From contig NZ_JAJSDQ010000001.1 of assembly GCF_021272345.1 (NCBI RefSeq), forward strand, positions 1 to 64,000: DNA of 64,000 nt. Direction: 5' to 3'. Both the position numbers and the translations under genes were made by a program. The notes under the pieces are model-generated. The model saw nothing but the letters and a program-made list of their open reading frames with translations. It did not search any database and was not told where the DNA came from. Shown here piece after piece: positions 34,226 through 50,917 of this stretch. Positions within the stretch are counted from its first letter, which is position 1. Every line of letters begins with the position of its first letter. The DNA comes from Ornithinimicrobium sediminis (GTDB lineage: Bacteria > Actinomycetota > Actinomycetes > Actinomycetales > Dermatophilaceae).

Positions 34226-36220
34226 TCAGGCCTCCCAGCCCCATACGTCCTGCGCCCACCCCGGGCGTCGCGAGCCAAGATAGCTGCCGACGACCGCGGC
34301 GCCGAGGTCGTCCAGCTCGGGTGCCACCACGCGCCCGTCGACCCGCCGTGCCATCGCGTCGACGAGGCGTGCCAGGCCCGGGTCCGCACCCAGCCGGAAG
34401 AACGTGGTCTGCGCGCCGAGGCGCCCCGCGGTCTCCAGCTCCCGCACGCTCAGCGCCAGGGTCAGCGGGTGGGGCGGGTAGTCGAAGAAGGGCTCACCGC
34501 CGGGATCCAGGTGCGCGGTCGGCTCGCCGTCGGTCACCACCAGCAGCACGGGCTGTGCGCTCGGATGTCTGCGGAAGTGGCGGTTGGCCAGCAACAGGCC
34601 GTGGTGCAGGTTGGTGCCCTTGTCCCACTGGGCGTCCAGCCCGGTGAGCGTCTCGATCTGCATCACCTCGGCATACCTGCCGAAGCCGATGAGCTGCAGC
34701 GCGTCGCCGCGGAAGCGGGTCGAGACGAGCTGGTGCAGCGCCAGGGCCGTCCTCTTCATCGGCACCCAGCGGCCCTCCATCGCCATCGAGAAGGAGGTGT
34801 CCACGAGCAGCGCGACCACCGCCTGGGTGCGGGCCTCGGTCTCGTGCACCTCGACGTCGCCGACGCTCAGCCGCCCAGGGCCGCCCCCCTCGGCGGCCGT
34901 GCGCGTGTGCGCGTTGAGCAGGGTGCGGGTCACGTCCCACGGCTCGGTGTCGCCGAACTGCCACTCACGGGTCGCGCCGCTGCGCTCACCCGCCGCACCC
35001 GCACGCCGGAGGTCGCGCGCCCCGGGCCGGCCCGACATCCGCTCGGCCACGTCCTTGAGCAGCGACCTGCCGAGCTGGCGCATCGCCTTGGGCGAGAGCC
35101 GCAGCTGCCCGTCGGCACCACGCTGCAGCAGGCCGGTGTCCCGCAGCGCCCGCTCGAGCTCGCTGAGCGTGCGGGCGTCGACGGCGGCGTCCTGCCCCAG
35201 CTGTCGCGAGAGCAGGTCGAGGTCGACGTCCCCCATCTGCGCCCCGGCATACTCCTGCGACAGCTGCTCCCCCAGCGCGTCCAGGTCGGCGAGGTCCTGC
35301 AGCACCCCGGTGCCGTCGCCGAGCCCGAGCCCCTGCTCGCCCTCGAAGCGCTCCGACCCACCCCAGTCCTCACCGGGGCGCAGGGCACGCAGGTTGTCGT
35401 CCAGCTGGGACAGCGAGCGCATGAGGTCGGGCGACCCGAAGGCCTGCGTGGCCAGGGCGTCGAGCTCGTCGCGCTGCTCCTGCGTCATCGAGCTGCGCAT
35501 CCGCTGGGCGGCGGCGGCCCGGGCGGCGAGCGCGTCGAGCAGCTCCTCGACCGTCTCGGGCCTCTCAGGGAAGAAGTCGCCGTGGCGGTCCATGAAGTCA
35601 CGGAACTGCTGGTCGGTGTCCTCCTCGAGCCGGTGCGCCTCGAGCAGCCGGTTGAGGTCCTGCAGCATCTCGGCGACCGCCGCACGGTCCTCGTCGGTGG
35701 CTCCCTCCAGGGCCTGCTTCATCCCCGCGAAGCGCTGGTCGAGCATCTCCCGGCCGAGCAGGTCCTTGATCTGCTCGTAGTCCTCACGGGCGTCGCTGCT
35801 GTGCCAGCGGTAGTCGCCCAGCTCGGACACGGCGGCAGCCGTGGACGGCGGCAGGCTCCCGATGCGCATCTCGTCGAAGCGCGCGTCGTCCCCCATCTCC
35901 CGGGCCAGCTGCTTGCGCTCGGCGAGCACCGCCCGGTCGAGCAGCTCGCGGACCTCTCGCATGGTGCCGTCCAGGCCGTGCCTGGTCAGCAGCTCGCGTC
36001 GCTTCTCGGCGACGCGACGGGCGAGGTCGTCGAGCCCCTGCTGGTCGCGGGTCCCCCGCCGCAGGAGCTCACGCATCGCCCGTTCGGGCGAGTACCCCGC
36101 CATGACGTCCTCGCCGATGACCTCCAGCGCCTCGGCCAGGTCGACCGGGGGCGCGAGCGGGTCCGGCCCGCCGGCGAACCTGCCGTAGCGGGCCCGGTGC
36201 CGATCCGGCCGGGCGCTCAC
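34226..36220 (-). CDS. VWA domain protein (ChlD/CoxE-like)
   Basis: Protein of 664 aa. A long helical N-terminal region (1 to about 450) is rich in Glu, Arg and Leu. A von Willebrand A domain follows, with the MIDAS motif DTSFSM near residue 473 and a downstream DGEP. This matches the VWA partner of MoxR-type AAA+ ATPases. Such pairs act as metal-dependent chaperones or maturation factors. The matching ATPase lies upstream, separated only by a dodecin gene. The start is GTG 36220. Confidence 0.86.
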   Translation of the reverse strand: MSARPDRHRARYGRFAGGPDPLAPPVDLAEALEVIGEDVMAGYSPERAMRELLRRGTRDQQGLDDLARRVAEKRRELLTRHGLDGTMREVRELLDRAVLAERKQLAREMGDDARFDEMRIGSLPPSTAAAVSELGDYRWHSSDAREDYEQIKDLLGREMLDQRFAGMKQALEGATDEDRAAVAEMLQDLNRLLEAHRLEEDTDQQFRDFMDRHGDFFPERPETVEELLDALAARAAAAQRMRSSMTQEQRDELDALATQAFGSPDLMRSLSQLDDNLRALRPGEDWGGSERFEGEQGLGLGDGTGVLQDLADLDALGEQLSQEYAGAQMGDVDLDLLSRQLGQDAAVDARTLSELERALRDTGLLQRGADGQLRLSPKAMRQLGRSLLKDVAERMSGRPGARDLRRAGAAGERSGATREWQFGDTEPWDVTRTLLNAHTRTAAEGGGPGRLSVGDVEVHETEARTQAVVALLVDTSFSMAMEGRWVPMKRTALALHQLVSTRFRGDALQLIGFGRYAEVMQIETLTGLDAQWDKGTNLHHGLLLANRHFRRHPSAQPVLLVVTDGEPTAHLDPGGEPFFDYPPHPLTLALSVRELETAGRLGAQTTFFRLGADPGLARLVDAMARRVDGRVVAPELDDLGAAVVGSYLGSRRPGWAQDVWGWEA

Positions 36221-36273
36221 CCGCTCACGGTAACCCCGGAGGCTGAGCGCCCGGCGGCCGGACCGGCGAATGG

Positions 36274-36480
36274 TCAGTCGTCGAGCACGAAGGTGACCTC
36301 GAGGATCACGCTGTAGGCGGTGATCCTGCCGTCGGCGGCCTCGATCTTCTGCTCCTTGACCCAGGCACCGGACACACCTCGCAGGGTGGCGTGGGCACGC
36401 TCGACACCGTTGCGCACGGCGTCCTCGAAGCTGGTCTCGGAACGTGCGCTGATCGTCGTGATTCTGGCGATGCTGCTCAT
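36274..36480 (-). CDS. dodecin
   Basis: Protein of 68 aa, the full dodecin length. The sequence shows the beta-alpha-beta-beta pattern with SFEDAVRNGVERA in the helix and the flavin-stacking Trp in VSGAWVKEQ. Dodecins assemble into dodecamers that store flavins or buffer CoA. It starts at ATG 36480 after an AGAGAGG SD, between the MoxR ATPase and VWA genes on the same strand. Confidence 0.93.
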   Translation of the reverse strand: MSSIARITTISARSETSFEDAVRNGVERAHATLRGVSGAWVKEQKIEAADGRITAYSVILEVTFVLDD

Positions 36481-36541
36481 GCTGACCTCTCTTCCGTCTC
36501 GGGTCCCTCCACCATCGACCCCTGCCGCGGAGGTCGCAACC

Positions 36542-37951
36542 TCAGCCGTAGGTCGTCTCGCCGGCTCCGGTCGACTCCTTGCCGACCTTCCGGGCGAGGT
36601 AGAGACCCTCCAACGCGAGCTCGACGGCGCTGGCCCGCTCGCCGTCGTTGGTCGCGCCGAGGCGGTCCATCACCTGGTCGTAGATGTCAGACTCCCCGAG
36701 CACGGGCAGCCCCGCGAGCACGTCGTATGCCGTGACCTGCTCCCCGGTGGTCACGCTCGCCCCGGCCTCGAGCGCCTCGACCAGCAGGCCCAGGTCGATG
36801 CCCCGCAGACGGTGCCGCACGGTGTCGGCGGTCGCCCGGCGCAGGAGGTGGTCCAGGATCTCCCGCTCGCGGCCCTCCTCACCCGACTCGAACTCGACCT
36901 TGCCGCCGAGCACGTCGACGGCGGCCTCCAGGTCGACCACCCGCGCCACCGCGTCGGGCTCGCCCTGCGCCGTGGCGCGGTGCAGGGCCGAGGCGGCCAC
37001 GGTCTCGGCGCCGGCGATGGAGAAGCGCGCCGACACCCCGGAGCGCTGGTCGACGGCCCCGGACTCGCGCAGCGACCGGGTGAAGCGCGCGAGGATCTCG
37101 ATGAGGTGGTCCGGCACGGTCGCGACCAGGTGCGCCTCCTGCCGGATGACCGCGACCTCGGCGTCGAGCTCCACCGGGTAGTGGGTGCGGATCTCGGCTC
37201 CGAAGCGGTCCTTGAGCGGGGTGATGATGCGCCCCCGGTTGGTGTAGTCCTCCGGGTTGGCGCTGGCGACGACGAGCACGTCGAGATCCAGCCGCAGCAC
37301 GTAGCCGCGGATCTGGATGTCGCGCTCCTCCATCACGTTGAGCATCGCCACCTGGATGCGCTCGGCCAGGTCGGGCAGCTCGTTGATCGCGACGATGCCG
37401 CGGTGCGAGCGCGGGATGAGCCCGAAGTGGATCGTCTCGGGGTCGCCCAGCGAACGCCCCTCGGCGACCTTCATCGGGTCGACGTCACCGATCAGGTCGG
37501 CCACCGACGTGTCGGGGGTGGCGAGCTTCTCCGCATACCGCTCCGAGCGGTGCCGCCATGCCACCGGCAGGTGCTCACCCAGCTCCGCCGCGCGGCGCAC
37601 GGACACCGGCGTGACCGGCGCGTAGGGGTGCTCCCCCAGCTCCGAGCCCTCGATGACCGGTGTCCACTCGTCGAGCAGGCCGACCAGGGTGCGCAGCAGA
37701 CGGGTCTTGCCCTGGCCCCGCTCACCCAGGAGCACCACGTCGTGCCCCGCCAGCAGCGCCCGCTCGAGCTGCGGCACCACGGTGCCCTCGAAGCCGTGCA
37801 GGCCCGGCCACGGGTCCTGTCCCGCCGCGAGCATCGCCAGCAGGTTGCTCCTGACCTCCTGCTTCAGGCCGGTGAGCTGGTAGCCCGACGCCCGCAGCTC
37901 ACCGAGCGTGCTGATCGTGGGCGGGGCGGTGGACGACGTGGGCTGGGTCAC
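36542..37951 (-). CDS. MoxR/ChlI-like AAA+ ATPase
   Basis: Protein of 469 aa. Walker A is LLGERGQGKT near residue 75. The Walker B region is GIVAINELPDL, with Asn-Glu in place of the usual Asp-Glu. Sensor-type VVASANPEDYTNRGR and the arginine-finger segment LKDRFGAEIRTHYP follow. This is the ATPase subunit expected to work with the VWA protein encoded about 320 nt downstream, as in the BchI/BchD and MoxR/VWA pairs. The client is unknown. Confidence 0.87.
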   Translation of the reverse strand: MTQPTSSTAPPTISTLGELRASGYQLTGLKQEVRSNLLAMLAAGQDPWPGLHGFEGTVVPQLERALLAGHDVVLLGERGQGKTRLLRTLVGLLDEWTPVIEGSELGEHPYAPVTPVSVRRAAELGEHLPVAWRHRSERYAEKLATPDTSVADLIGDVDPMKVAEGRSLGDPETIHFGLIPRSHRGIVAINELPDLAERIQVAMLNVMEERDIQIRGYVLRLDLDVLVVASANPEDYTNRGRIITPLKDRFGAEIRTHYPVELDAEVAVIRQEAHLVATVPDHLIEILARFTRSLRESGAVDQRSGVSARFSIAGAETVAASALHRATAQGEPDAVARVVDLEAAVDVLGGKVEFESGEEGREREILDHLLRRATADTVRHRLRGIDLGLLVEALEAGASVTTGEQVTAYDVLAGLPVLGESDIYDQVMDRLGATNDGERASAVELALEGLYLARKVGKESTGAGETTYG

Positions 37952-39767: not shown

Positions 39768-39909
39768 CGGTCCTCCAGGTGACGGCACCGGCGCGGACGT
39801 GCGCCGGATCGAGTCACCTCACCGTAGGCAGCACCTCGGACGCCTGTCTCCGCGAGAATGGTCAAATCTTGGCAAGGGTTCGGTCAGCGACACCCCAAGG
39901 AGGAGCCCG

Positions 39910-40767
39910 ATGACCATCGCGGTGACCGGGGCGACGGGCCATGTCGGCGGCCGCACGGCCCGGCTGCTCAGCGCGGCGGGAGTGCCCCAGGTGCTCCTGG
40001 TCCGTGACCCCTCGCGTGCACCGGCGCTCGCCGGGGCGGAGGTGAGACGCGCGGCCTACGGCGACAGCGTGGCCTGCCGCCGTGCGCTCGAGGGGGTCGA
40101 CGTGCTCCTCATGGTCTCCGCGTCGGAGTCGGCGACCCGGCGGGAGCAGCACCTCGCGATGGTCCGTGACGCCGCTTCGTCCGGCGTGCGCCACCTCGTC
40201 TACCTGTCGTTCCTCAACGCCGCCCCGGAGGCGACCTTCACGCTGGCGCGCGACCACTGGGCGACCGAGCAGGCCGTCCGCGACAGCGGCCTGAGCGCCA
40301 CCTTCCTGCGGGACAGCTTCTACGCCGACGTCCTGCCCCTCTTCGTCGGTGACGACGGGGCCCTGCGCGGCCCGGCGGGCGACGGCCGGGTCTCGGCGGT
40401 GGCCCGGCGCGACGTCGCCGAGGTGGCGACGGCCGTGCTCCAGGACCCGCAGGCGTATGCCGGCCGCACCCTGGACCTGACCGGCCCGGAGGCGCTGAGC
40501 CTGCAGGAGGTCGCGGCGGTCCTGTCGCAGACCGCCGGACGAGAGATCCGCTACGTCGAGGAGTCCCTCGAGCAGGCGCGTGCCTCGAGGGCCCGGTGGC
40601 ATCCCGAGCCGTGGCAGCTCGACGCCTGGGTCTCGACCTACCTGGCCATCGCGGCCGGGGAGGTCGCCACCGTGAGCGACGACGTCGAGCGGGTGCTGGG
40701 GAGGGCCGCCACCCCCTTCCGCGAGGTCGTCGCCGGATGGGCGGGGCCGACGACTGCGGCCCGCTGA
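39910..40767 (+). CDS. NmrA-like NAD(P)-binding oxidoreductase
   Basis: Protein of 285 aa from ATG 39910 after AAGGAG. The Rossmann motif TGATGHVG is at residues 6-13, and VSASESATRREQH and FLRDSFYADVLPLF are typical of the NmrA/quinone oxidoreductase QOR2 branch of atypical SDRs. It lacks the YxxxK pair of classical SDRs, so it may be a redox sensor or a quinone reductase. It is monocistronic and convergent with the giant gene that follows; a duplicated GACCGAGGTGTC lies between them. Confidence 0.87.
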   Translation: MTIAVTGATGHVGGRTARLLSAAGVPQVLLVRDPSRAPALAGAEVRRAAYGDSVACRRALEGVDVLLMVSASESATRREQHLAMVRDAASSGVRHLVYLSFLNAAPEATFTLARDHWATEQAVRDSGLSATFLRDSFYADVLPLFVGDDGALRGPAGDGRVSAVARRDVAEVATAVLQDPQAYAGRTLDLTGPEALSLQEVAAVLSQTAGREIRYVEESLEQARASRARWHPEPWQLDAWVSTYLAIAAGEVATVSDDVERVLGRAATPFREVVAGWAGPTTAAR

Positions 40768-40791: not shown

Positions 40792-43700
40792 TCAGAGCGG
40801 GACGTGGTCGGCGTAGACCAGCCGGTGCGCCTGCCCCTTGCCCGGCCGGTTGGGCCCCTCGTCGGGGTCGGCGTCGAAGTGCTCGTGCTCCTCCAGGAGG
40901 ACCCGCAGACGGGTGGAGGAGCCGGGGGTGGCCACCGCGACCGGTTCCGGGAGGGTCAGCTCGGCCGACCAGGTCACCCGCAGGCCCGCGAACCCCACGA
41001 GCGGGAGCCGGACGCGCTCGTGGTCGACCCACTCCAGGTCGCTGCCGCCCGCGGCCGGAGCCTCCTGCACCGTGGCGAACACCTCGCGGGAGGCCCGCAG
41101 CAGCGCGTCCGCACCGTCCAGTGCCGCCTCCGACGTCACGGACGTCATCCCCCACCTGGGGTCCGGCAGCCGGCTGAGGCCGACCGGCCCGGTCACCGTC
41201 AGCCGCACCGTCTCGTCCGTGCGCCGGCTGGCCGTCGCAGTCCGCTCCGGCAACGGCTGCACCCAGTCGGCCATCACGACCGGCGACAGGTCGTGACCCG
41301 GCAGGGAGTGCGGCTGGTAGCGCGCGAGCGCGAGCCGCACGAAGGGCCACACCGAGTCGCCGGGGTCCATCGCCACGTCGACGAACCACTGCCGCCGGCC
41401 GGGGTGGAACTCGGGCCGGTAGCCCAGCACGCTCACCGTCGGCGTGTCCTTGGCGTCGACCAGCGCGCTGCTGACGAACGGTGTCACCGGCCGCCCGGGA
41501 CGCGGGTCGACCACCTCCCCCGCGACCATGGTGAGCACGAGGTCGCCCAGGCCCACCAGCGGGGGCATCGTCGTGGTGGGAGGTATGCCGGTGAGCTGGG
41601 TCGGGTCCTTGCCCCACCGCGAGGACAGGCTGGGCGGGACGGCGTCCGAGGCGGCGAGCACCACGCCCAGCAGCTCGCCGTCACCGGAGGAGAACCACGG
41701 CCGGTCCAGCCAGACGCGAGCGCCCGAGCGGCGGGTGCGTCGCAGAGCGAACGGCTGGTCCGCCTCGGTCTGCTCCTCCCACAGCAGGAGAGGCCCCACG
41801 TCCGTGACCACCGGGGCCGCCGGGCGCGCAGAGCTGACCACCGTCAGCTCCCGCGGCGCCCCGCGCAGCGACGGGTCGTCCGGGGCGGGCAGCTCGGACG
41901 GGTCGAAGAACTCGGCGTAGCGCGTCACCCCACGTGGCGTGTACGTCACCCGCCGGTGGTGGGTGTCGGTGAAGGTCTGGAGAGCACGGTGGGACACGAC
42001 CGGCACGGTGCCGCCGTCGCCCCCGACCACGGCGTCCACGAGGTGCAGCAGGCCGTAGTGGTCGTCCGGGTGCACCGGTGAGGACAGCACCACGTCCTGG
42101 CGCTCGACGCGCTGCGGTCCCTCGGCGGCGAGGTCGTCGACCCACTCGCTCCAGCTCGCCTCCAGCACCAGCCGCTCGGTGCTCGGCCCGTGCACGTCCA
42201 CCACCCCGGCCAGGGCCGCGACCGTGAGCCCCGGTGGGCGCAGCAGCACCCTCAGGGCCGCCAGCTCCGGTGGGCGCACCGGCTGCCGCACGGCATGCAC
42301 CAGCCGGAGGTCGTGCGAGGGGGTGAGCCACCAGAACCACCCGTTGGCGGCGGCCCGCGCCAGCAGCGCCCGGGCCAGTCCGTCCGCCTCGTCGCCGCCG
42401 GGCGCCGAGGCCACGTGCGAGCGCCACAGCCCCAGCACCTGCAGCCGCTCCTCGTCGAGGGCCGACGACATCGCGACCCGCACCTCCTCCCCCGCCGGCA
42501 GCGACACCCGCACGAGGTTGCCCTCACGTCGCGCGCCGAGCTGCTCCCCCGGCTCCAGCACCAGCCGCAGCGGCTCCCGGCCGGGCCAGCCTCCGGCATA
42601 CGGCAGCACCACCGTCTGGAGCACCCGGGGCTCGGGCAGAGTGTGCCCGGCACCGGCGTCGTAGAACACCAGCGACGCCCCGTGCGCCAGCGGGTCCGGC
42701 AGGTAGGGAAGCACGAGCCGGTCGGTGTCGTGGACGACGTACTGTCCCTCGCCCAGAGGCGTGTCCCGCCGGGTGGTGACCTGCTCGAGCGTCACCTGAG
42801 CGTCCGGGTCGGCGCCGGGGCGGGTGTGCAGCGCGATCCCGTCCTGGTGCACGGTGGCGGTGGGGTCGGCCAGGTCCTGGACCCACTCGTCGAGCAGGGT
42901 GCCGCGCTCCTTGAGTGCGGTGGCCAGCAGCTGGTCGTGCACCGCCGGGTCGCTCGAGCCGATGGCGGCGTCGAACTCACCGTGCTGCTCGGCCTCCAGC
43001 TGGGTGCCCTTGGGCGGGGCCACGTGCCGCTGGGTGCTCTGGTCGTCACGCACGACGAGCCGCTGCAGGCTCTCGCCAGGGCCCAGCGGGTGCCGTGCCA
43101 CGAGGGTCGGCGGCGGCACCGGGTGCCACCGCAGGAACGGGCGGGGGGTCGTGACGACCGGGACGGCCAGGGGCCGGGGAGCCACGGGCGGCACCCCCAC
43201 GCCGGGGACCCGGGGCGAGCCGGGCCGCCGCACGATCGGGTCCCGCGTGTCGTCCAGCCCCGCGAAGACCGAGGGGTCGACCTCGAGATGGGCCCGCACC
43301 CGCCAGGTGTCATGGGTGCGGGCCAGCCGTCCCAGCGCGACGGTGACCCCGCGCCGCAGCGCGGCATCCTCGCCGGACAGCTCGGTGCTGACCCGCTCGG
43401 TGGCGCGGCGCAGCAGGACGGAGTCCACCTCCTCAACCCCCGTGACCGCCTCCTGCGGCAGCCGGACCTCCTGGGGCGGCCGGGCCTCGCGGGCCATCCG
43501 CCCCTGCGCCCCGGACAGGTCCTCGGCGGTGCGGGCCAGCAGGTCGAGAAGCCCGGTGTCCTCCGGGCCGGGCCCACCGGGAAGCCTCTCCAGCACGTCC
43601 TCACGCACGACGCCGAGCAGCCCGGACCGGTCCCGCTCGGCGAACGTGCGGCGCAGCAGCTCCAGCTGGTCCTCGGCGGCGGCGAGCGCCTGGCCCCCGG

Positions 43701-45510
43701 CCCCTCCCGCGGCCGGGCGGGGCACCGAGTTGCCGGCCAGGTCGACGCCACGCACACGGAAGGAGTAGCGACGTCCGTAGCGCAGCCACGGCAGGGTGCC
43801 CGGCTCCACCCGGGTCGTGGTGTGGACGTGGCCGGCCGGTGGGTCCGGCGGCTCGTCGAGCACCAGCTCCTCACCGGCAGGACCGTTGACGCCGTCACCG
43901 TGCACGACGACCTTGCCCGGCCGGGGGGCGGACAGGCTCCACCCGTCCCACCCGACGAAGACCTCGTGCAGGTAGTAGGGGTTGCCCTCCCCCGGGACCT
44001 TCGTCAGGCCGGTAAGCTGCAGGAAGCCGGTGTCCGGGGTGTCCTCGAGCACCGGCCTGCCGCCGGCGGTGACGTCGACCCGGCGTGCGTGCACGGAGTG
44101 CCATGTCGTGCTCTCGTCGTCCCAGACCTCCAGCCGTATGCCGCGCACCAGGTCGTCGTAGGACAGGTCCGGTCCGGCAGCGGTGCCGTCGTCGTCGGCC
44201 GCGGTGAGCGTCTCGGCGCGCTGCACCTGCGCCAGCAGCGCGGCGTCGCGACCGGTCCGCGCGATGGAGAAGCCGGTCGCGCGCAGCGACGCCGGCGCGG
44301 CCGTGACCGGGTCACCGTTGAGCTCGGTGGCCAGCGCCCTGGGCAGGTCGCGCACATGCTGCTCCAGCTTGAGCGCGGACGCGTCGGGGTCCAGGTCCAG
44401 CACCGTGTAGGTGTCGGGGTCCCCCAGCGGCATCGCTCCCCCGGCCCAGGCGTCGGAGGACACGGCACGGAAGTGCCCGCGGGACGACTCGCACCACGTG
44501 CGCGGTGGAGCCAGCCGCACGACGTCCGCGCCCTCGGCGGGGCTGAAGCGGGCCGAGACCCAGGAGGCACCCGCCAGCAGCTGCCGGTCGTCGGGGTCGT
44601 CGACCGCCACGTCGACGACGAGCCCCAGGGCGCGCAGCAGGACGGGGGTGCTGCCCAGGGACCCGGCACGCTCGTGGAAGTCCTGCTCGGGGACCTCGGG
44701 GCGGGGGTGCACCGCCTCGGGGTCGGGCCGGTCGAGGTAGGCCGGCTCCTCACGCTGGTAGAACCGGCGTGCCGCGTGGACGTCCCGCAGCGCCACGAGC
44801 ACCGGGTCGTCGAGCGAGGTCTCCTCGAGCAGGGAGTCCAGGTAGTCCGTGAACCTCCGGTCGCCGTCGGTGTCCCGCAGCAGCACCTCCACGGCCGAGG
44901 TCCACGCCGTCGGCTCGGACGGGTAGCCCCCGTCGCGCAGCCCCCGCTGGCCGAGCGTGGCGGCCACCTCCGCCAGCCTGCGCCGGTAGACCTCGGCGTC
45001 ACGCTCGGCCCGCGCGCCTGCCTGGCCCAGGAGCTCGCGCACCGCCGTCTGCAGCTCGCCGAAGGGCTGCAGCACCGCCTCGACGAGCGGGTTGCCCAGC
45101 ACGGGCGGCGGGGCCAGGGGTGAGACCAGGGTGGAGCCCAGGTGCAGGTCGAGCGCGTGCCCGTCCATCGCATGGGCGGGGAAGGTCCGCCACGGCTCGT
45201 CGGTCACGTGCGGTGTCGGGAAGCCGACCACCGGGGTGTCCTCGGGGAAGACGGCGGACCAGTCGTCCTGGTCGGGAGCGGGCTCGGACACGACGCGCAC
45301 CGGGATGCCGCCCGGCGCAGTGTCGGTGACCAGGTCCAGCGTGCCCGCGAGCAGCGTCGTGACCCAGGACGCGGTGTCCGGGAAGTCGCCCAGCACGGAC
45401 GGCGCCGCGTCCGGGGTGAGCCGGTGGGTGAAGAACACCGAGAGGTGGAACGGCGCGTCCGGTGCCAGGGAGTGCGGCAGCGCGGTGGCGAGGAGGCGGG
45501 TCGTGGTCAT
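40792..45510 (-). CDS. giant protein of unknown family, 1572 aa
   Basis: I do not recognise this protein. It has no signal peptide, lipobox or transmembrane helix. Composition is acidic and beta-rich with many Trp/Tyr. Near residue 588 a short fibronectin-like strand, RYSFRVRGVDLAGNS, is visible. Around 1080-1110 the stretch GWFWWLTPSHDLRLVHAVRQ stands out, and Glu/Arg helices lie at about 600-720. No nucleotide-binding, protease or nuclease motif was found. It starts at ATG 45510, 1 nt after the stop of the 1205-aa gene, so the two are surely co-translated. Codon use is like the neighbours. It may be a structural or surface-assembly component. Confidence 0.85.
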   Translation of the reverse strand: MTTTRLLATALPHSLAPDAPFHLSVFFTHRLTPDAAPSVLGDFPDTASWVTTLLAGTLDLVTDTAPGGIPVRVVSEPAPDQDDWSAVFPEDTPVVGFPTPHVTDEPWRTFPAHAMDGHALDLHLGSTLVSPLAPPPVLGNPLVEAVLQPFGELQTAVRELLGQAGARAERDAEVYRRRLAEVAATLGQRGLRDGGYPSEPTAWTSAVEVLLRDTDGDRRFTDYLDSLLEETSLDDPVLVALRDVHAARRFYQREEPAYLDRPDPEAVHPRPEVPEQDFHERAGSLGSTPVLLRALGLVVDVAVDDPDDRQLLAGASWVSARFSPAEGADVVRLAPPRTWCESSRGHFRAVSSDAWAGGAMPLGDPDTYTVLDLDPDASALKLEQHVRDLPRALATELNGDPVTAAPASLRATGFSIARTGRDAALLAQVQRAETLTAADDDGTAAGPDLSYDDLVRGIRLEVWDDESTTWHSVHARRVDVTAGGRPVLEDTPDTGFLQLTGLTKVPGEGNPYYLHEVFVGWDGWSLSAPRPGKVVVHGDGVNGPAGEELVLDEPPDPPAGHVHTTTRVEPGTLPWLRYGRRYSFRVRGVDLAGNSVPRPAAGGAGGQALAAAEDQLELLRRTFAERDRSGLLGVVREDVLERLPGGPGPEDTGLLDLLARTAEDLSGAQGRMAREARPPQEVRLPQEAVTGVEEVDSVLLRRATERVSTELSGEDAALRRGVTVALGRLARTHDTWRVRAHLEVDPSVFAGLDDTRDPIVRRPGSPRVPGVGVPPVAPRPLAVPVVTTPRPFLRWHPVPPPTLVARHPLGPGESLQRLVVRDDQSTQRHVAPPKGTQLEAEQHGEFDAAIGSSDPAVHDQLLATALKERGTLLDEWVQDLADPTATVHQDGIALHTRPGADPDAQVTLEQVTTRRDTPLGEGQYVVHDTDRLVLPYLPDPLAHGASLVFYDAGAGHTLPEPRVLQTVVLPYAGGWPGREPLRLVLEPGEQLGARREGNLVRVSLPAGEEVRVAMSSALDEERLQVLGLWRSHVASAPGGDEADGLARALLARAAANGWFWWLTPSHDLRLVHAVRQPVRPPELAALRVLLRPPGLTVAALAGVVDVHGPSTERLVLEASWSEWVDDLAAEGPQRVERQDVVLSSPVHPDDHYGLLHLVDAVVGGDGGTVPVVSHRALQTFTDTHHRRVTYTPRGVTRYAEFFDPSELPAPDDPSLRGAPRELTVVSSARPAAPVVTDVGPLLLWEEQTEADQPFALRRTRRSGARVWLDRPWFSSGDGELLGVVLAASDAVPPSLSSRWGKDPTQLTGIPPTTTMPPLVGLGDLVLTMVAGEVVDPRPGRPVTPFVSSALVDAKDTPTVSVLGYRPEFHPGRRQWFVDVAMDPGDSVWPFVRLALARYQPHSLPGHDLSPVVMADWVQPLPERTATASRRTDETVRLTVTGPVGLSRLPDPRWGMTSVTSEAALDGADALLRASREVFATVQEAPAAGGSDLEWVDHERVRLPLVGFAGLRVTWSAELTLPEPVAVATPGSSTRLRVLLEEHEHFDADPDEGPNRPGKGQAHRLVYADHVPL

Positions 45511-45511
45511 C

Positions 45512-48500
45512 TCAGGCTCCCGGGGCGAAGGCCGCGCAGTAGGCGGACCAGGCGTCGCTGTGGCCGTCGGCGTCCGGCGGCATGATGTCCTTCAGGACGG
45601 GGTCGCCCTTGGACCCGGCGAGGCGGCGCTCGCAGGTGACGGTGACCGAGGCGGAGAAGAAGAGCACCTCGACCTCGACCACCAGGGATGCTTTGCCGAC
45701 CATCTTGCCGGTCGGGAAGTCGTAGGTGAGGGACAGCTCCAGGGTGATGGAGGCGGAGATGAGGCCCAGCACGTCGACCTCGCCGCGGATGCGGAAGTAG
45801 CCGGTCAGCGACCCGGCCTCGCCCTCGAGCCTGAGGTAGACCCCGACCGAGACCGAGACCGAGCCGGAGGCGACCCCGAGGTCGACCGACAGGGAGGCCG
45901 CGGCCTCCAGGCCCATCTCGAGCGCGACCATGCCCATCGGTGAGAGCCGCAGGGCGACCCACCCGCCCCCACCGATGCACATCACGGTGAGGCGGAACGG
46001 CGAGTCCTTGGAGCAGAAGGAGAACCCCACCGTGACGGCGTCACCCAGGAAGGGCACCCGGGCGTCGGCGCCCAGTGCGATGTTCTCCAGGCTGAACACC
46101 CCGACCGAGACGTTGGGCAGCTCGAGGTCGAAGCCCGCGGTGACCCCGTCGGGGGCCACGTCGACGTAGGGCGGGTCGGCGAACCCGTCGAAGGGGATCA
46201 TCCGGCGCAGCGTCTCGACGAAGCCGAGCGCTCCGAGGAACTCCATGCCGTCGAAGACGACGTCGACCTCGGGCGCGCTGCCGGAGCTGACGCGGAAGCC
46301 GATGCGCGAGAAGTTCATCGCCATCAGCGGCTCACCCGGCAGCAGCTGCAGGGCGAAGGTGCGCAGCTCGGCGCTGACGTCGACACTCGGAGCGCCCTGC
46401 GCACCGGCTCGCACCTCCACGGCCAGACCGAAGCCGAGCCGGTCCTTGGCGTGGAAGACCGGGGCGGCCTCGGACGGCCAGCTGCCGATCTCGGGCCGCC
46501 ACTCGAAGCGGGCCGTCACGCCGTCGGCCGGGGTGAGCAGGTCGTCGGCGAAGTCAACGACGGCCTGGAGGAGCTCGGCTGCCGAGAGGATCGCGTCGAG
46601 CGCCTCCAGCGGCTTGGCGAGGGAGGAGCGGACCGCCACGGGCAGCCGTGGGTGCACCAGAGCGGTGCGCAGCGCCTGCAGGGCGCTGAGCACCTCGGCT
46701 GCTGCGTCCTCGACGGCCGTGACGCCGGCCGGGTTCCCGGCGAGGCCCGCGAGGGCGGTGGCCAGGGTCTGGAGGCGGCCGCGCAACGGTGCGGCAGCCG
46801 TGTCCAGCGCGTCCTGTGCGTCCTGGATGGCCTGGGTGGCCCCGGTGTGGGCACCGTTGAGGCCCGCCTGGGCCAGGTCCTCGGCGAGCCGGGCCTGGGC
46901 CGCGGTGACCGCCGCCTGCAGCCGCTCCACCTCGGCGCCGACCGCGGTGACGGTGTCGAGGGCCTCGGTGACGAAGCTCGGTGCCGCCGAGAGGTCCAAG
47001 GGCTGACCGGTGACGGCCTCGATGAGCTCGACGAGGTCGAACAGGCCGAACAGCTTCGGCAGCGCTCCCTGCAGGAAGGCCGCGGCGTCGAACCGGCCGT
47101 CGGCCAGCCCTCCGGCGGTGGACCCGTCGTCGCCCACGGCTCCGAGGGAGCGGGACAGGGCGCGGACCATGAGGTTCGGCGAGACGAAGCCGCCGGCCTG
47201 GTCGGTGCCGGTGGAGAAGTCCAGCCCCACCGGGGGGCCGGCCAGGGTCAGGAACAGGCCGGAGGGGTTCAGCGTCCCGAAGCCCAGGGCGGTGTCACCA
47301 CCGGGCTCCGTGGCCAGGTAGGCGTCGGCGAAGGTGAGGTCGACCCCCGGCGCCTGGCCCGCCAGGTGCCGCAGTGCCGGGACCACGGCGTTGCTGCTGG
47401 TCAGGAAGGGGCGGGAGGTGTACTCGTCGACGTCGGTGTGCCCGTCCCAGGACAGCGTGTTGACCTCCAGCCGGGTGTCGCCGTGCGCGGCCGGGGCCGC
47501 GAAGGAGACGAGCTGTCCGCGAGCGTCGACGACCCGGTGGGTGGCGTAGGCGTCGGACACCGCCTGCCCGGTCTGGGCGGGGGTGTTGTCGGAGCGCAGG
47601 TCGTCGATCGCCGCCTCCGGCACGAAGAGGAGCGGGGCCGAGAGCGAGACCGTCTCCCCCGCCCGGTCCACCCCGGTGAGGTCCCACCGGAACGGCACGC
47701 CGCCCCGGTGCGGGAAGAACATGGTGGTCGGCTCCTCAGGGACCGGGTCCAGGTCCGGGGTGACCAGGGGCTCCAGGGTCACCTGGTGCAGCGGGGTGTC
47801 CCGCTGCGACCAGGAGCGCACGGTCTCGCGGAGCACGATGAAGAACCGCTGGCGCAGGTATGCCGTGCGGCTGGGCTCGTGGACCTTGCGCTCGGTGAGC
47901 TTGACCAGCTCGCAACGGTGACCGAACGGGAAGAGGAAGCCCGGGTAGGTGAGCCGGACATAGGAGTCGCGCCCCATGTCGGCGACATGGCGGTAGGAGG
48001 AGATCTTGGTGATCGTGCCGCCCCAGCCCTCCAGCGAGCTCCACTGCGTGGTGTCCCAGGCGCCACGCCAGTCGACCCAGGCCCCGAGCGCGGACAGGTG
48101 CAGCCTGCGCACCCGGAAGGGCACCGGGGTCACCCCCTCGTGCGTCGCCGCGCTCTGCCGCACCAGCGTGCGGCGGTCGACCGGGGTCGTGGACATCAGG
48201 ACGACGTCCTGGTCCTCGGCGAGGTCGGGTGCCTCCAGGTCGCGCGCCCAGACGGCACGCACCACCCGCTGGAGGTGGTCGTCGGTGTGGCCCTGGAACT
48301 GCTGCTCCTCGTCCTCGACGCGGGTGGTCAGCCGGGTGTGCCACAGCTGGGCCCTGCTCGCGTCGTCGCCGGCGGTCACCGGCTCGACGTCGTGCACGAA
48401 GGCGCCGTGTGCAGCGCTCGGCGAGACCACGAGCCGGTAGGGCACCTCGAGGGCAGTCTCGTCGGCAGCCGGCGGCCGGGGTCGCACCGGCCGGACCGGC

Positions 48501-49129
48501 CGCAGCGGGCGGGTCGGGCGCACCGGCCTGCCCGGGGCCGCCACCACCCCCGGCAGCCCCTCGACCGCCCTCCCCAGCACGCCGTGGCTGATGCCACGCA
48601 CCATACGGACGGTGCGGGCCGCCACGGCAGCGCGGGTCAGGGTGCGCGGTCCCGCCAGGGTCACGTCGTCCAGGCGGACCTCCTCGAAGACCCACGGCGG
48701 CAGCACGAAGCCGCCCGGTCCGGCGGCCGGGGAGAGGTCCTCGGGGTAGCTGTCCGGGCCGGGCGTGGCCAGCGGCGCGACCCGCAGCCGCAGCCGCGGC
48801 AGGGCCGCGAGGACCCCGGCCAGGGACCAGGGCACCTCGGTCCCCGGTGGCAGGTCGTAGACCAGGCGGGACGGGCGGGCCGCCCGGTGCCCGGCGACGA
48901 GGTCGACCTCGGGGGGCTCCGGGCTGCCGAGGTACTCCGGGTAGGCCTGCTCCCCCAGGTGCTGGAAGGCGAGGTCGACGACGAGGTGGCCGCTCTCCCG
49001 CCCTGTGCGCAGGACGGGTCCGTGCCCGTCACGACGGAGCGTGGCGCCGACGGCGGTCACCCGCAGGTCGAGCAGGTCCTTCGGCCGGAGCAGCCGGGCG
49101 GTGGTGGCTCTGCGACGGATCGGAGGCAT
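45512..49129 (-). CDS. giant protein of unknown family, 1205 aa
   Basis: Not recognised. ATG 49129 has a GGGGAG SD 7 nt upstream. The N-terminal half is mixed beta, with an Arg-Pro linker at about residue 200-220. An Ala/Leu-rich helical block at about 700-870 looks like coiled coil. The last roughly 300 residues are repeated amphipathic beta strands (VSVGVFSLENIALGADARVP, then SLSVDLGVASGSVSVSVGVY), suggesting a long beta-groove or barrel-like sheet. There is no signal peptide, and it ends in a Cys-containing tail. It is first in a two-gene operon with the 1572-aa gene, behind a 126-nt promoter region. Confidence 0.85.
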   Translation of the reverse strand: MPPIRRRATTARLLRPKDLLDLRVTAVGATLRRDGHGPVLRTGRESGHLVVDLAFQHLGEQAYPEYLGSPEPPEVDLVAGHRAARPSRLVYDLPPGTEVPWSLAGVLAALPRLRLRVAPLATPGPDSYPEDLSPAAGPGGFVLPPWVFEEVRLDDVTLAGPRTLTRAAVAARTVRMVRGISHGVLGRAVEGLPGVVAAPGRPVRPTRPLRPVRPVRPRPPAADETALEVPYRLVVSPSAAHGAFVHDVEPVTAGDDASRAQLWHTRLTTRVEDEEQQFQGHTDDHLQRVVRAVWARDLEAPDLAEDQDVVLMSTTPVDRRTLVRQSAATHEGVTPVPFRVRRLHLSALGAWVDWRGAWDTTQWSSLEGWGGTITKISSYRHVADMGRDSYVRLTYPGFLFPFGHRCELVKLTERKVHEPSRTAYLRQRFFIVLRETVRSWSQRDTPLHQVTLEPLVTPDLDPVPEEPTTMFFPHRGGVPFRWDLTGVDRAGETVSLSAPLLFVPEAAIDDLRSDNTPAQTGQAVSDAYATHRVVDARGQLVSFAAPAAHGDTRLEVNTLSWDGHTDVDEYTSRPFLTSSNAVVPALRHLAGQAPGVDLTFADAYLATEPGGDTALGFGTLNPSGLFLTLAGPPVGLDFSTGTDQAGGFVSPNLMVRALSRSLGAVGDDGSTAGGLADGRFDAAAFLQGALPKLFGLFDLVELIEAVTGQPLDLSAAPSFVTEALDTVTAVGAEVERLQAAVTAAQARLAEDLAQAGLNGAHTGATQAIQDAQDALDTAAAPLRGRLQTLATALAGLAGNPAGVTAVEDAAAEVLSALQALRTALVHPRLPVAVRSSLAKPLEALDAILSAAELLQAVVDFADDLLTPADGVTARFEWRPEIGSWPSEAAPVFHAKDRLGFGLAVEVRAGAQGAPSVDVSAELRTFALQLLPGEPLMAMNFSRIGFRVSSGSAPEVDVVFDGMEFLGALGFVETLRRMIPFDGFADPPYVDVAPDGVTAGFDLELPNVSVGVFSLENIALGADARVPFLGDAVTVGFSFCSKDSPFRLTVMCIGGGGWVALRLSPMGMVALEMGLEAAASLSVDLGVASGSVSVSVGVYLRLEGEAGSLTGYFRIRGEVDVLGLISASITLELSLTYDFPTGKMVGKASLVVEVEVLFFSASVTVTCERRLAGSKGDPVLKDIMPPDADGHSDAWSAYCAAFAPGA

Positions 49130-49255: not shown

Positions 49256-50917
49256 TCACAACCCCAGTGCCCGGGCCACCTGGGCACCGCCCATCTCGGC
49301 GATGACGCCCGGGTCACCGACGACGACGAGCCGGTCGGTGGCGCGGGACATCCCGACGTACAGCCGCTCCCGCGAGCGCTGGCGCGACTCCGCCTCGTTG
49401 ACGCACAGCACCACGGCCTGACGCTCCAGCCCCTTGCAGCCGAGCACGTGACCGTAGAAGACCTCCTCGGCGTCCCAGAAGCTCTGCCAGTAGCCGTCCT
49501 GGCCGCGGCTGTCCTGCAGCTCGACCTGCTGGGGGTGACGATGGCCGGTGGTGAGCAGCGCGACGTGCAGGGGCTCCCAGCCCTCGTCGAGCAGCGCCTC
49601 GACCTGGTCGTCGGCGACGTCGAGGGCGTCGTCGGCGGGTGCCGCGACGAAGGAGACCTCCGCACCGGAGCCGCCCATGAGCCGCATCCTCATCGGGGCC
49701 AGCGGAGCGAAGACCTCCGCGATCTGCCGGGTGTTGCGCAGGTTGTGGTCGAGCACGAGCGGCACGAGCTCCACGGGAGGGCGCCCGAAGCGCGGGAAGA
49801 TGCGCTGGTTCTCGTCGGAGTAGACGAACAGGCCGCCGGCCTCCTCGTCGCGCAGTGCCCGGATGAGGGGTGACCACCACGACTCGGCGAAGTCCTGTGC
49901 CTCGTCGACGACGATCGCGTCGAAGCGCTCCTTGTCCTGCAGCTGCTGGGCCAGGTCACCCATGAGGCCCGGCAGCGAGACCTCCCAGAAGTCGCTGTCC
50001 TCCCGCGACCCCTCCGGCGCGCCCCACTGCATACCGAGCTCGTGGAAGGTCCCGACGAAGGCCGGACGGTGCCGGCGGGGCAGCGCGGCCACCTGTCGTT
50101 TCAGGTAGCCGGCCAGGCCGATGGAGTAGCACAGCAGCGCCACCCGCTGCGCAGGACGGCCGTTGCCACCCCGGGTGAGGTCCTTGGCCTGGGTCAGCGC
50201 CAGGATCGTCTTGCCGCTGCCGGCACCCCCGCGCACCTCCACGCGGTGCAGCAGCCGGGTCACCTTGAGCAGCAGTGCCTGCTCCTGGGTGAGCCGGTCG
50301 GCGACGGCCTCGCGCTCGTCCGCCTCCGCCACGACGTCGGGACGGGGCCGGTGACGGCCGCGGACGATCTCACAGACCAGCTCGACGTCGTCATGGCTCG
50401 GCACGCGGTGGCCGGACTCCTGACGGGTCGCGACCTCGCGGAGCCGCTCGGCGAGGGAGCCCATGTCCTCCCTGCCGTGCACGGCCCAGCGGGGGCAGTC
50501 AGGCGTCGCGAAGTCGTCGTCGAGGTGCGTGAACGGTGTGACGACCGCATGCCCCCAGCGCACCCGGGTGCGGGAGGAGTGGGCCCAGCCCGGGTCGCTC
50601 TCGACGTAGTGCCGCAGCGCGTACTTGCCGTCCCGGGCCTGGTCGACAGGGTGGATCCGACGGGTCTGCCCACCGCTGTGCTGCCACCACCGGCCCTCGT
50701 CGTCGACCGAGACGGACCCGCCCTTGACCTCGACCACGACGATGCCGACCTCGGGCATGAGGACGACGAGGTCGAGCTCGTGGTCCTTGCCCTCGGTGAG
50801 CCTCAGGTTGGCGAGCACCACGTCGTCGGACGTCAGCGCGCCGACGACGTGGCGCCACACCAGCGCCTCGGACTCGGTCGTGAAGACGGGCTCCGGTGGG
50901 ACGGCACGGGCTGGCAC
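49256..50917 (-). CDS. NERD-domain UvrD-like helicase
   Basis: Protein of 553 aa. An N-terminal NERD nuclease-related domain has HELDLVVL (Asp49) and VVEVKGG (Glu63, Lys65), the PD-(D/E)XK pattern. A superfamily 1 helicase core follows, with Walker A GGAGSGKT at 230-237, DEAQDF at 338-343, and late motifs VLGCKGLE and ERLYVGMSRATDRLVV. It is compact compared with UvrD and is often annotated as a DNA/RNA helicase. The start is GTG 50917 with an AGGAGG SD. Likely roles are DNA processing or anti-mobile-element defence; it stands beside the giant gene pair on the same strand. Confidence 0.87.
   Translation of the reverse strand: MPARAVPPEPVFTTESEALVWRHVVGALTSDDVVLANLRLTEGKDHELDLVVLMPEVGIVVVEVKGGSVSVDDEGRWWQHSGGQTRRIHPVDQARDGKYALRHYVESDPGWAHSSRTRVRWGHAVVTPFTHLDDDFATPDCPRWAVHGREDMGSLAERLREVATRQESGHRVPSHDDVELVCEIVRGRHRPRPDVVAEADEREAVADRLTQEQALLLKVTRLLHRVEVRGGAGSGKTILALTQAKDLTRGGNGRPAQRVALLCYSIGLAGYLKRQVAALPRRHRPAFVGTFHELGMQWGAPEGSREDSDFWEVSLPGLMGDLAQQLQDKERFDAIVVDEAQDFAESWWSPLIRALRDEEAGGLFVYSDENQRIFPRFGRPPVELVPLVLDHNLRNTRQIAEVFAPLAPMRMRLMGGSGAEVSFVAAPADDALDVADDQVEALLDEGWEPLHVALLTTGHRHPQQVELQDSRGQDGYWQSFWDAEEVFYGHVLGCKGLERQAVVLCVNEAESRQRSRERLYVGMSRATDRLVVVGDPGVIAEMGGAQVARALGL

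What the first reader, a model, noticed from the sequence alone, without database searches (positions are those of the whole stretch)
40792..49129. Two adjacent giant genes of unrecognised family
8.3 kb of one strand is filled by two open frames of 1205 and 1572 codons separated by 1 nt, with good SDs and host-like codon use. I can name no domain in either. The first ends in about 300 residues of alternating beta strands after an Ala-rich coiled-coil block. The second is beta-rich and Trp/Tyr-rich with a fibronectin-like strand. Neither has a signal peptide or membrane helix. This looks like a two-component structural or assembly system, possibly a cytoplasmic or injected particle, a surface structure or a lipid-transfer groove.
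Basis: partly seen in the sequence, partly recalled or inferred. Interest (0 to 1): 0.7.

Follow-up and report, generated by a model that had tools for sequence, protein, structure and literature searches.

The report
Two giant partner proteins, function unknown
Two very large neighbouring genes form a tightly linked, widely scattered bacterial pair that the protein libraries searched do not recognise; in several relatives the first protein carries a signal for export in folded form and the second carries none, which suggests that they may assemble inside the cell and leave together.

Summary
In detail: A (window 45512-49129, 1205 aa) and B (40792-45510, 1572 aa) lie on the minus strand, 1 nt apart, and match no known family convincingly. 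They form an accessory two-gene module: A is in 6 of 31 genomes of the genus, in 13 of 396 sampled from the phylum, and on plasmids of Rhizobium, Cupriavidus, Streptomyces and others. B follows A on the same strand in 55 of 58 counted loci (median gap 4 nt in 47). A and B distances correlate at r = 0.95 (45 loci). No third gene is constant.

New: A carries a twin-arginine (Tat) signal in 12 of 48 loci, and by the same rule in 7 of 8 further testable loci; B has none that convinces. One B, beside a Tat-bearing A, ends in three cell-wall-binding repeats. Best reading: an obligate A:B complex, exported through Tat in several lineages with B as hitchhiker. Such complexes (about 250-570 kDa) would exceed the 150 kDa stated for Tat. 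The window's copy and its supported clade lack the signal, so its location is open. Biochemical function is unknown; structure prediction failed (pLDDT 33 and 37).

The parts
45512..49129 (-). gene A, 1205 aa (128 kDa): N-terminal and middle beta-type regions, Ala-rich helical block, C-terminal amphipathic beta domain; no signal peptide in this copy
40792..45510 (-). gene B, 1572 aa (170 kDa), Trp/Tyr/Arg-rich; starts 1 nt after the stop of A; no convincing signal peptide in the 47 + 8 B proteins tested (the window included)
46550..46993 (-). A residues 713-860, Ala-rich amphipathic helical block; much longer amphipathic stretches in the roughly 2500-3300-aa A proteins of five alphaproteobacterial plasmids (moments computed for three of the five)
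   Evidence: composition and moment; helices, low confidence
45515..46522 (-). A residues 870-1205, C-terminal domain of long alternating strands; the part used as search profile A3
   Evidence: (model pLDDT 37 only)
45524..45556 (-). A residues 1192-1202, conserved C-terminal tail (W..Y..AFA)
   Evidence: W1194 93%, F1201 93% of 41 sequences
43732..43794 (-). B residues 573-593, conserved fibronectin-like strand (LPWLRYGRRYSFRVRGVDLAG)
   Evidence: L576, Y582, G593 100% of 40 sequences; no Fn3 model hit
43141..43707 (-). B residues 602-790: insertion present in the window and its four close congeners; two blocks of about 60-95 residues each are missing from the ten distant B proteins compared, the divergent congener L030 included

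Best explanation
A and B are the two subunits of one obligate complex, made from a two-gene operon with coupled or nearly coupled translation. Shown: adjacency, order and co-divergence. Inferred: physical binding. In several lineages the complex works outside the cytoplasm: A carries a Tat signal and B none, so the likeliest route is assembly and folding in the cytoplasm, recognition of A's twin arginines, and export of B as a hitchhiker, followed by retention at the envelope (cell-wall-binding repeats on one B; a lectin-like stretch on one A, which itself has no Tat signal). The C-terminal sheet of A, the part shared by all members found with it, would be the working or assembly surface, and the Ala-rich helices a spacer or membrane-facing segment (inference only). 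The window's clade lacks the signal, so there the same complex either stays inside the cell or leaves by another route.
For: B directly follows A on the same strand in 47 of 49 loci and in 8 of 9 further loci; exceptions L043, L068, L143. Gap A to B: median 4 nt, 44 of 47 within 60 nt. Distances of A and B correlate at r 0.954 over 45 loci, 0 of 2000 permutations as high. Tat signal on A in 12 of 48 loci (11 by the first version of the rule), against 3 of 868 internal windows of A and B and 1 of 47 B, in a conserved strand. In a further set A has it in 7 of 8 with complete N-terminus by the rule, the eighth by eye; B 0 of 8. The label is clustered on the A tree: 5 changes, shuffled mean 10.8, 0 of 500 as low. 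B of L066 ends in three CW_binding_2 repeats, E 1.8e-46, beside a Tat-bearing A. A of L106 begins like lectin PLL3, E 2.4e-5. An annotated tatA gene follows B in Sinorhizobium meliloti pC, and a similar small gene follows B in Ensifer adhaerens.
Against: 36 of 48 A proteins of the first set, the window's included, show no Tat signal by the rule, and the window sits inside a well-supported signal-less clade. Physical binding is untested. With B the cargo would be about 250-570 kDa, above the 150 kDa stated for Tat in PMC6708511; the short Tat-bearing A proteins alone (111-120 kDa) fit that limit, so export of A without B, or a tethered A, is possible. The further set came from two families already known to hold Tat members, so it is not an independent draw. 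In Ensifer adhaerens A is not found and B is shortened, so only one tatA neighbour belongs to a complete pair. L106, with the lectin-like stretch, has no Tat signal, and only one B was found with CWB2.
Confidence: 0.5

Rival explanations
1. Intracellular scaffold or storage/stress structure: the pair works in the cytoplasm in most lineages, and Tat signals were gained several times as side branches.
For: 36 of 48 A proteins lack a signal by the rule, including the window and its supported clade; no convincing B signal in 47 + 8 tested.
Against: Tat signals sit on several separate branches in Actinomycetota and Alphaproteobacteria (several of them long and poorly placed); cell-wall-binding and lectin-like attachments exist.
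Confidence: 0.25
2. Lipid-handling machine: the amphipathic C-terminal sheet of A forms a hydrophobic groove, the Ala-rich helices bind lipid, and B completes the carrier.
For: Highest beta moment of A in its C-terminal domain and amphipathic helices before it; Pfam Apolipoprotein match in one of 22 A proteins, E 4.1e-8, presumably L043, which its record annotates so; lipid-hydrolase genes beside some copies: patatin-like in L034, zinc phospholipase C family in L038, and, read by motif, an SGNH/GDSL-type gene within 2 nt after B in L141 and L142.
Against: No confident fold: pLDDT 33 and 37, no Foldseek match at E <= 0.001. The hydrolases are not one family, none is constant, and no background rate was measured. 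The GDSL hit in L142 (E 0.0049) and a ceramidase-type hit on the gene before A in L067 (E 0.0061) are both below their cut-offs.
Confidence: 0.15
3. Secreted or injected toxin complex or particle of the contractile-injection or two-component kind.
For: Two giant proteins, patchy distribution, plasmid carriage.
Against: No Rhs, tail, sheath or baseplate family hit in the A and B proteins scanned and no constant third gene; no phage record and no viral contig in six scans. Weak Foldseek rows naming binary toxins come from a pLDDT 37 model at TM 0.15 or less and carry no weight.
Confidence: 0.06
4. Anti-phage defence module.
For: Some copies lie near defence-type genes: dpd genes (L037), SIR2 (L043), HsdR domain (L041), NERD helicase (window).
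Against: No PADLOC match beyond chance for A or B; such neighbours are not constant; Tat export would not fit defence.
Confidence: 0.04

Closest known systems
Tat hitchhiker co-export (E. coli HybO/HybC, PaoABC; PMC4273604, abstract and start of introduction seen)
   Same: one subunit with a Tat signal, partner(s) without; assembly before export (inferred here)
   Different: no cofactor-enzyme family seen; A plus B larger than the 150 kDa stated as upper cargo size (PMC6708511, passage seen); the window's copy has no signal
CWB2-bearing surface proteins of monoderm bacteria (role of the domain recalled)
   Same: B of L066 carries three CW_binding_2 repeats
   Different: B has no signal of its own; only one B was found with CWB2
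PLL-type lectins (PDB 6t96, Photorhabdus lectin PLL3)
   Same: N-terminal stretch of A in L106 (residues 15-106) matches at E 2.4e-5
   Different: only that member; the shared A/B core has no such match
Amphipathic-sheet lipid proteins (TULIP, bridge-like lipid transfer; recalled)
   Same: long alternating strands and, in some members, amphipathic or apolipoprotein-like helices
   Different: no sequence or confident structural match

Membership tests
Tat hitchhiker pair (some lineages of the family) | Tat signal on exactly one partner | tested here: met
   A 12 of 48 and then 7 of 8 by rule; B 1 of 47 (judged false) and 0 of 8; met in those lineages only
Tat hitchhiker pair (the window's copy) | Tat signal on one partner | tested here: not met
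   no RR plus hydrophobic stretch on A or B; only 23 further codons of open frame upstream of A
Tat hitchhiker pair | physical complex formed before export | not testable with these tools
   only indirect: adjacency and r 0.954
Tat hitchhiker pair | cargo within the known size range | tested here: not met
   A plus B about 250-570 kDa against 150 kDa stated; A alone fits in the short forms (111-120 kDa)
Contractile injection / Tc-type systems | tail, sheath, baseplate or Rhs/TcA-type domains | tested here: not met
   no such hit in the A or B scanned; no constant third gene
Phage or prophage protein | relatives in phage records or viral contigs | tested here: not met
Lipid-transfer groove proteins | groove fold | tested here: inconclusive
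   models too poor
Known anti-phage systems | match to a PADLOC model | tested here: not met
   A 8.4 bits at E 0.18, B none

The most novel reading that the evidence does not exclude
A widespread, unrecognised envelope machine whose two giant subunits fold and join in the cytoplasm and cross the membrane as one preassembled 250-570 kDa complex through Tat, far above the cargo size stated in the literature, in some plasmid copies with a TatA gene of their own; signal-less lineages such as the window's would be an intracellular or otherwise released form of the same machine.
Probability: 0.25. Interest if true: 0.8.

Novelty: categorically new. Interest (0 to 1): 0.55.

Why it matters
The pair takes up about 8 kb of the window's genome, spans Actinomycetota, Alpha- and Betaproteobacteria, and has no model in the protein libraries searched. 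It offers a two-protein complex ready for experiment and a direct test of the size limit of Tat, with natural candidate cargos about 1.7 to 3.8 times the figure in the review read here if A and B cross together. It also supplies a family in which some members have the signal and others do not, useful for asking how export is gained or lost.

Tried and rejected
Structure prediction: A (1200 aa) and its C-terminal domain (338 aa), each with three rows, gave pLDDT 33 and 37. The Foldseek search with the second model gave no match at E <= 0.001 and its rows are not used. PDB sequence searches with A and B profiles gave E 0.23 at best, and 1200 residues of the long A of L036 gave nothing. A constant third gene was looked for in 29 and then 49 loci and not found; L063, L065 and L106 share a third gene after B, and the three copies scanned had no Pfam match. 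An empty insertion site at the window's locus could not be shown: the NERD helicase next door is common in the genus, but its surroundings differ in the six genomes compared. A viral origin was rejected after phage searches with A and B and six viral-contig scans. The Tat-like hit on one B (L065) was rejected because it lies in the strand conserved near the B start (my reading). tatA-like genes in L121 and L122 have no A or B match there and were not counted. Weak Pfam hits not used: HHH_3 in B of L105 and PG_binding_1 in B of L039, both just below their cut-offs, and DUF7217 in one A at 5.4e-4. Paper searches (listings only) returned nothing recognisable as this pair; the family has no name to search by, so this is weak evidence of absence from print. 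PMC13323110 was opened for passages and gave nothing used.
Full report
What is there. The two frames are real and exactly placed: A, 1205 aa, window 45512-49129, and B, 1572 aa, 40792-45510, both minus strand, with TGA-G-ATG at the junction and GGGGAG/GGGAG 6-7 nt before the starts. Third-position GC is 0.95 and 0.94. dN/dS among five congeners (window, L002, L003, L023, L025) is 0.13-0.45 for A and 0.18-0.43 for B. Neither protein has a hit at E <= 0.001 in Pfam, NCBIfam, PHROGs or PADLOC; all but one of the weaker hits fall on the Ala-rich block of A.

Where it occurs. A named relative suggests that the genus is Ornithinimicrobium (L002 is Ornithinimicrobium sp. F0845; its contig length equals that of a contig of G018, a genome of the window's genus; L003, a MAG, matches G023 in the same way). 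A is found in 6 of 58 genomes, all 6 among the 31 of the same genus; B in 7 of 58, the extra one on a short contig. With a profile of A's C-terminal domain the count is 13 of 396 genomes drawn from the phylum, 14 of 394 from the class and 13 of 396 from the order; these samples overlap and include the window's genome. On plasmids tblastn finds A in 18 records and B in 16: Rhizobium, Sinorhizobium, Ensifer, Agrobacterium, Ruegeria, Cupriavidus, Diaphorobacter, Paraburkholderia and Streptomyces. I fetched 12 of the 18 A records. No phage record matches, and six viral-contig scans returned no relative.

The unit is A plus B. I counted 58 loci: 49 in the first set (the window, 5 congeners, 11 plasmid loci, 32 loci from 30 other genomes) and 9 in a second set. 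Left out: L018 (short contig), L042 (remnant of A), L120 (shortened B without a recognisable A), L124 and L125 (B fragments), and the weak class-level hit in G548 (E 4.9e-5), whose neighbourhood was not fetched. B lies next to A, downstream and on the same strand, in 47 of 49 and 8 of 9; several of these B genes are cut by contig ends. The exceptions: L043, where a 2569-aa frame follows A but does not match the B profile; L068, where neighbouring frames match A and B only in part, E 2e-15 and 4.5e-11; L143, which ends inside A. The gap is 4 nt at the median and within 60 nt in 44 of 47. Of the three outliers, L037 (386) is an artefact of my automatic start choice, since the annotated B starts 41 nt after A; L061 (-451) is probably one too, unchecked; L111 is 64. 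Pairwise distances of A and B correlate at r = 0.954 over 45 loci, no permutation of 2000 reaching it (of the 55 loci with both, 10 with split, cut or doubtful frames were left out). The nearest neighbour is the same for A and B in 32 of 45. In three genomes with two copies (G595, G1161, G1159) the copies are only 30-36% identical, equally so in A and B. No third family is constant.

Architecture. In A the N-terminal and middle parts are beta-type by hydrophobic moment; then comes an Ala-rich amphipathic helical block of about 150 residues in the window; the last 340 residues are alternating strands with the highest beta moment of the protein. In five alphaproteobacterial plasmid copies A is 2493-3311 aa; in the three of them profiled the amphipathic helical part runs over several hundred residues. 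One of 22 A proteins matches Pfam Apolipoprotein at 4.1e-8. The conserved residues of A and B are mostly Gly, Pro, Trp, Leu, Phe, Arg, Asp and Glu and do not suggest to me a catalytic set. Structure models are not usable.

Export. The N-termini of A relatives led to a test: an RR motif followed by a hydrophobic, acid-poor stretch. By that rule 11 of 48 A proteins have a Tat-type signal, and 12 of 48 when the search follows the start of the conserved part (L064 counted through its separate N-terminal piece). The test as used hits 3 of 868 internal windows of A and B, and 1 of 47 B proteins, there within the strand conserved near the start. Pfam's TAT_signal model hits 1 of 22 A proteins at 0.0036. 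Several signals end in an A-x-A-type site (read by eye). To test the idea I searched the two families that hold L066/L067 and L108/L109 for more members: of 8 A proteins with a complete N-terminus, 7 pass the rule (in L139 and L140 inside an over-long frame) and the eighth (L135) has TRR plus a hydrophobic run by eye; 0 of 8 B proteins do. This is a within-clade test, since those families were chosen because members already had the signal. On a tree of A's C-terminal domain (48 rows) the Tat label needs 5 changes against a shuffled mean of 10.8 (0 of 500 as low); the window lies inside starred sets of 5, 12 and 13 rows without the signal. The bootstrap had not settled and several Tat rows sit on very long branches, so ancestral export with loss and repeated gain cannot be told apart.

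Envelope attachments. B of L066, beside a Tat-bearing A, ends in three CW_binding_2 repeats (E 1.8e-46). B of L039 has a weak peptidoglycan-binding hit just under its cut-off (22.1 against 23 bits). A of L106 begins with a stretch like lectin PLL3 (E 2.4e-5), though that A has no Tat signal. In Sinorhizobium meliloti LMB1 an annotated TatA/E gene begins 49 nt after B ends; in Ensifer adhaerens a similar small frame begins about 20 nt after a shortened B, and A was not found in the stretch fetched. In the loci held no such gene was found beside any other copy with that query. In L141 and L142 a frame with an fn3 domain begins within 2 nt after B; the L141 protein reads as a Sec-signal SGNH-type hydrolase (that assignment rests on motifs I recognise and on a sub-threshold GDSL hit in L142).

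Size. Tat-bearing A proteins are 111-120 kDa in the actinobacterial loci computed and 326-358 kDa in four alphaproteobacterial ones; A plus B comes to about 250-570 kDa where both frames are complete (B taken as the open frame, so some values are upper figures). A review states that Tat handles cargo up to 150 kDa (PMC6708511, passage seen); another paper gives 20-70 A in diameter and describes hitchhiker export (PMC4273604, abstract and start of introduction). If these pairs cross as complexes they are outside that range, and the four long A proteins are so even alone; if not, A may be tethered by an uncleaved signal, or exported apart from B.

Verdict. The pair is a conserved two-protein family without a model in the libraries searched and without an assigned function. 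That A and B form one functional unit is close to shown by genome evidence; that they bind is inferred; export through Tat is well supported by the signal on A in some lineages, inferred for B, and not met for the window's copy. What the complex does is not known: the envelope role is the best reading, a lipid-handling role the most interesting addition, and neither a toxin/injection device nor a defence system is supported.

Noticed in passing
window 49256-50917 (-): NERD + UvrD-type helicase just upstream of A; 25 of 38 relatives searched had a match, but in different surroundings in the six genomes compared; resembles PADLOC RTasNERD-Hel (E 4.1e-33).
   Followed up: partly
window 34226-37951 (-): AAA ATPase gene (AAA_5, Mg_chelatase and MCM hits) beside a gene with a VWA domain.
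   Followed up: no
window 39799-40767 (+): NmrA-like NAD(P)-binding protein convergent with B; its best matches among the relatives lie in other families of the order (53-59% identity) rather than in the genus (best-scoring ones 33-38%), suggesting transfer.
   Followed up: partly
L063:14245-15198, L065:13782-15497, L106:6480-7517: A third gene family directly after B in three actinobacterial loci; two copies end in Cys/His-rich, zinc-ribbon-like tails; the three copies scanned had no Pfam match.
   Followed up: partly
L036:28655-28822 (+), L120:6718-6855 (-): Small TatA/E-type genes immediately after B on a Sinorhizobium and an Ensifer plasmid.
   Followed up: yes
L034:15128-19451: A is split into two frames in Rhizobium ruizarguesonis TP23, followed by a full-length B and, about 0.8 kb on, a patatin-like phospholipase gene.
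   Followed up: no
L043:18652-26361 (+): In R. ruizarguesonis TP33 the gene after A encodes 2569 aa and does not match the B profile; possibly a replaced or far-diverged partner.
   Followed up: partly
L037:29669-36774: dpdE-dpdH genes (by annotation; 7-deazaguanine DNA modification type, recalled) follow the pair on an Agrobacterium vitis plasmid.
   Followed up: no
L067:4875-6974 (+): Gene about 85 nt before A with a sub-threshold ceramidase-type Pfam hit (E 0.0061).
   Followed up: no
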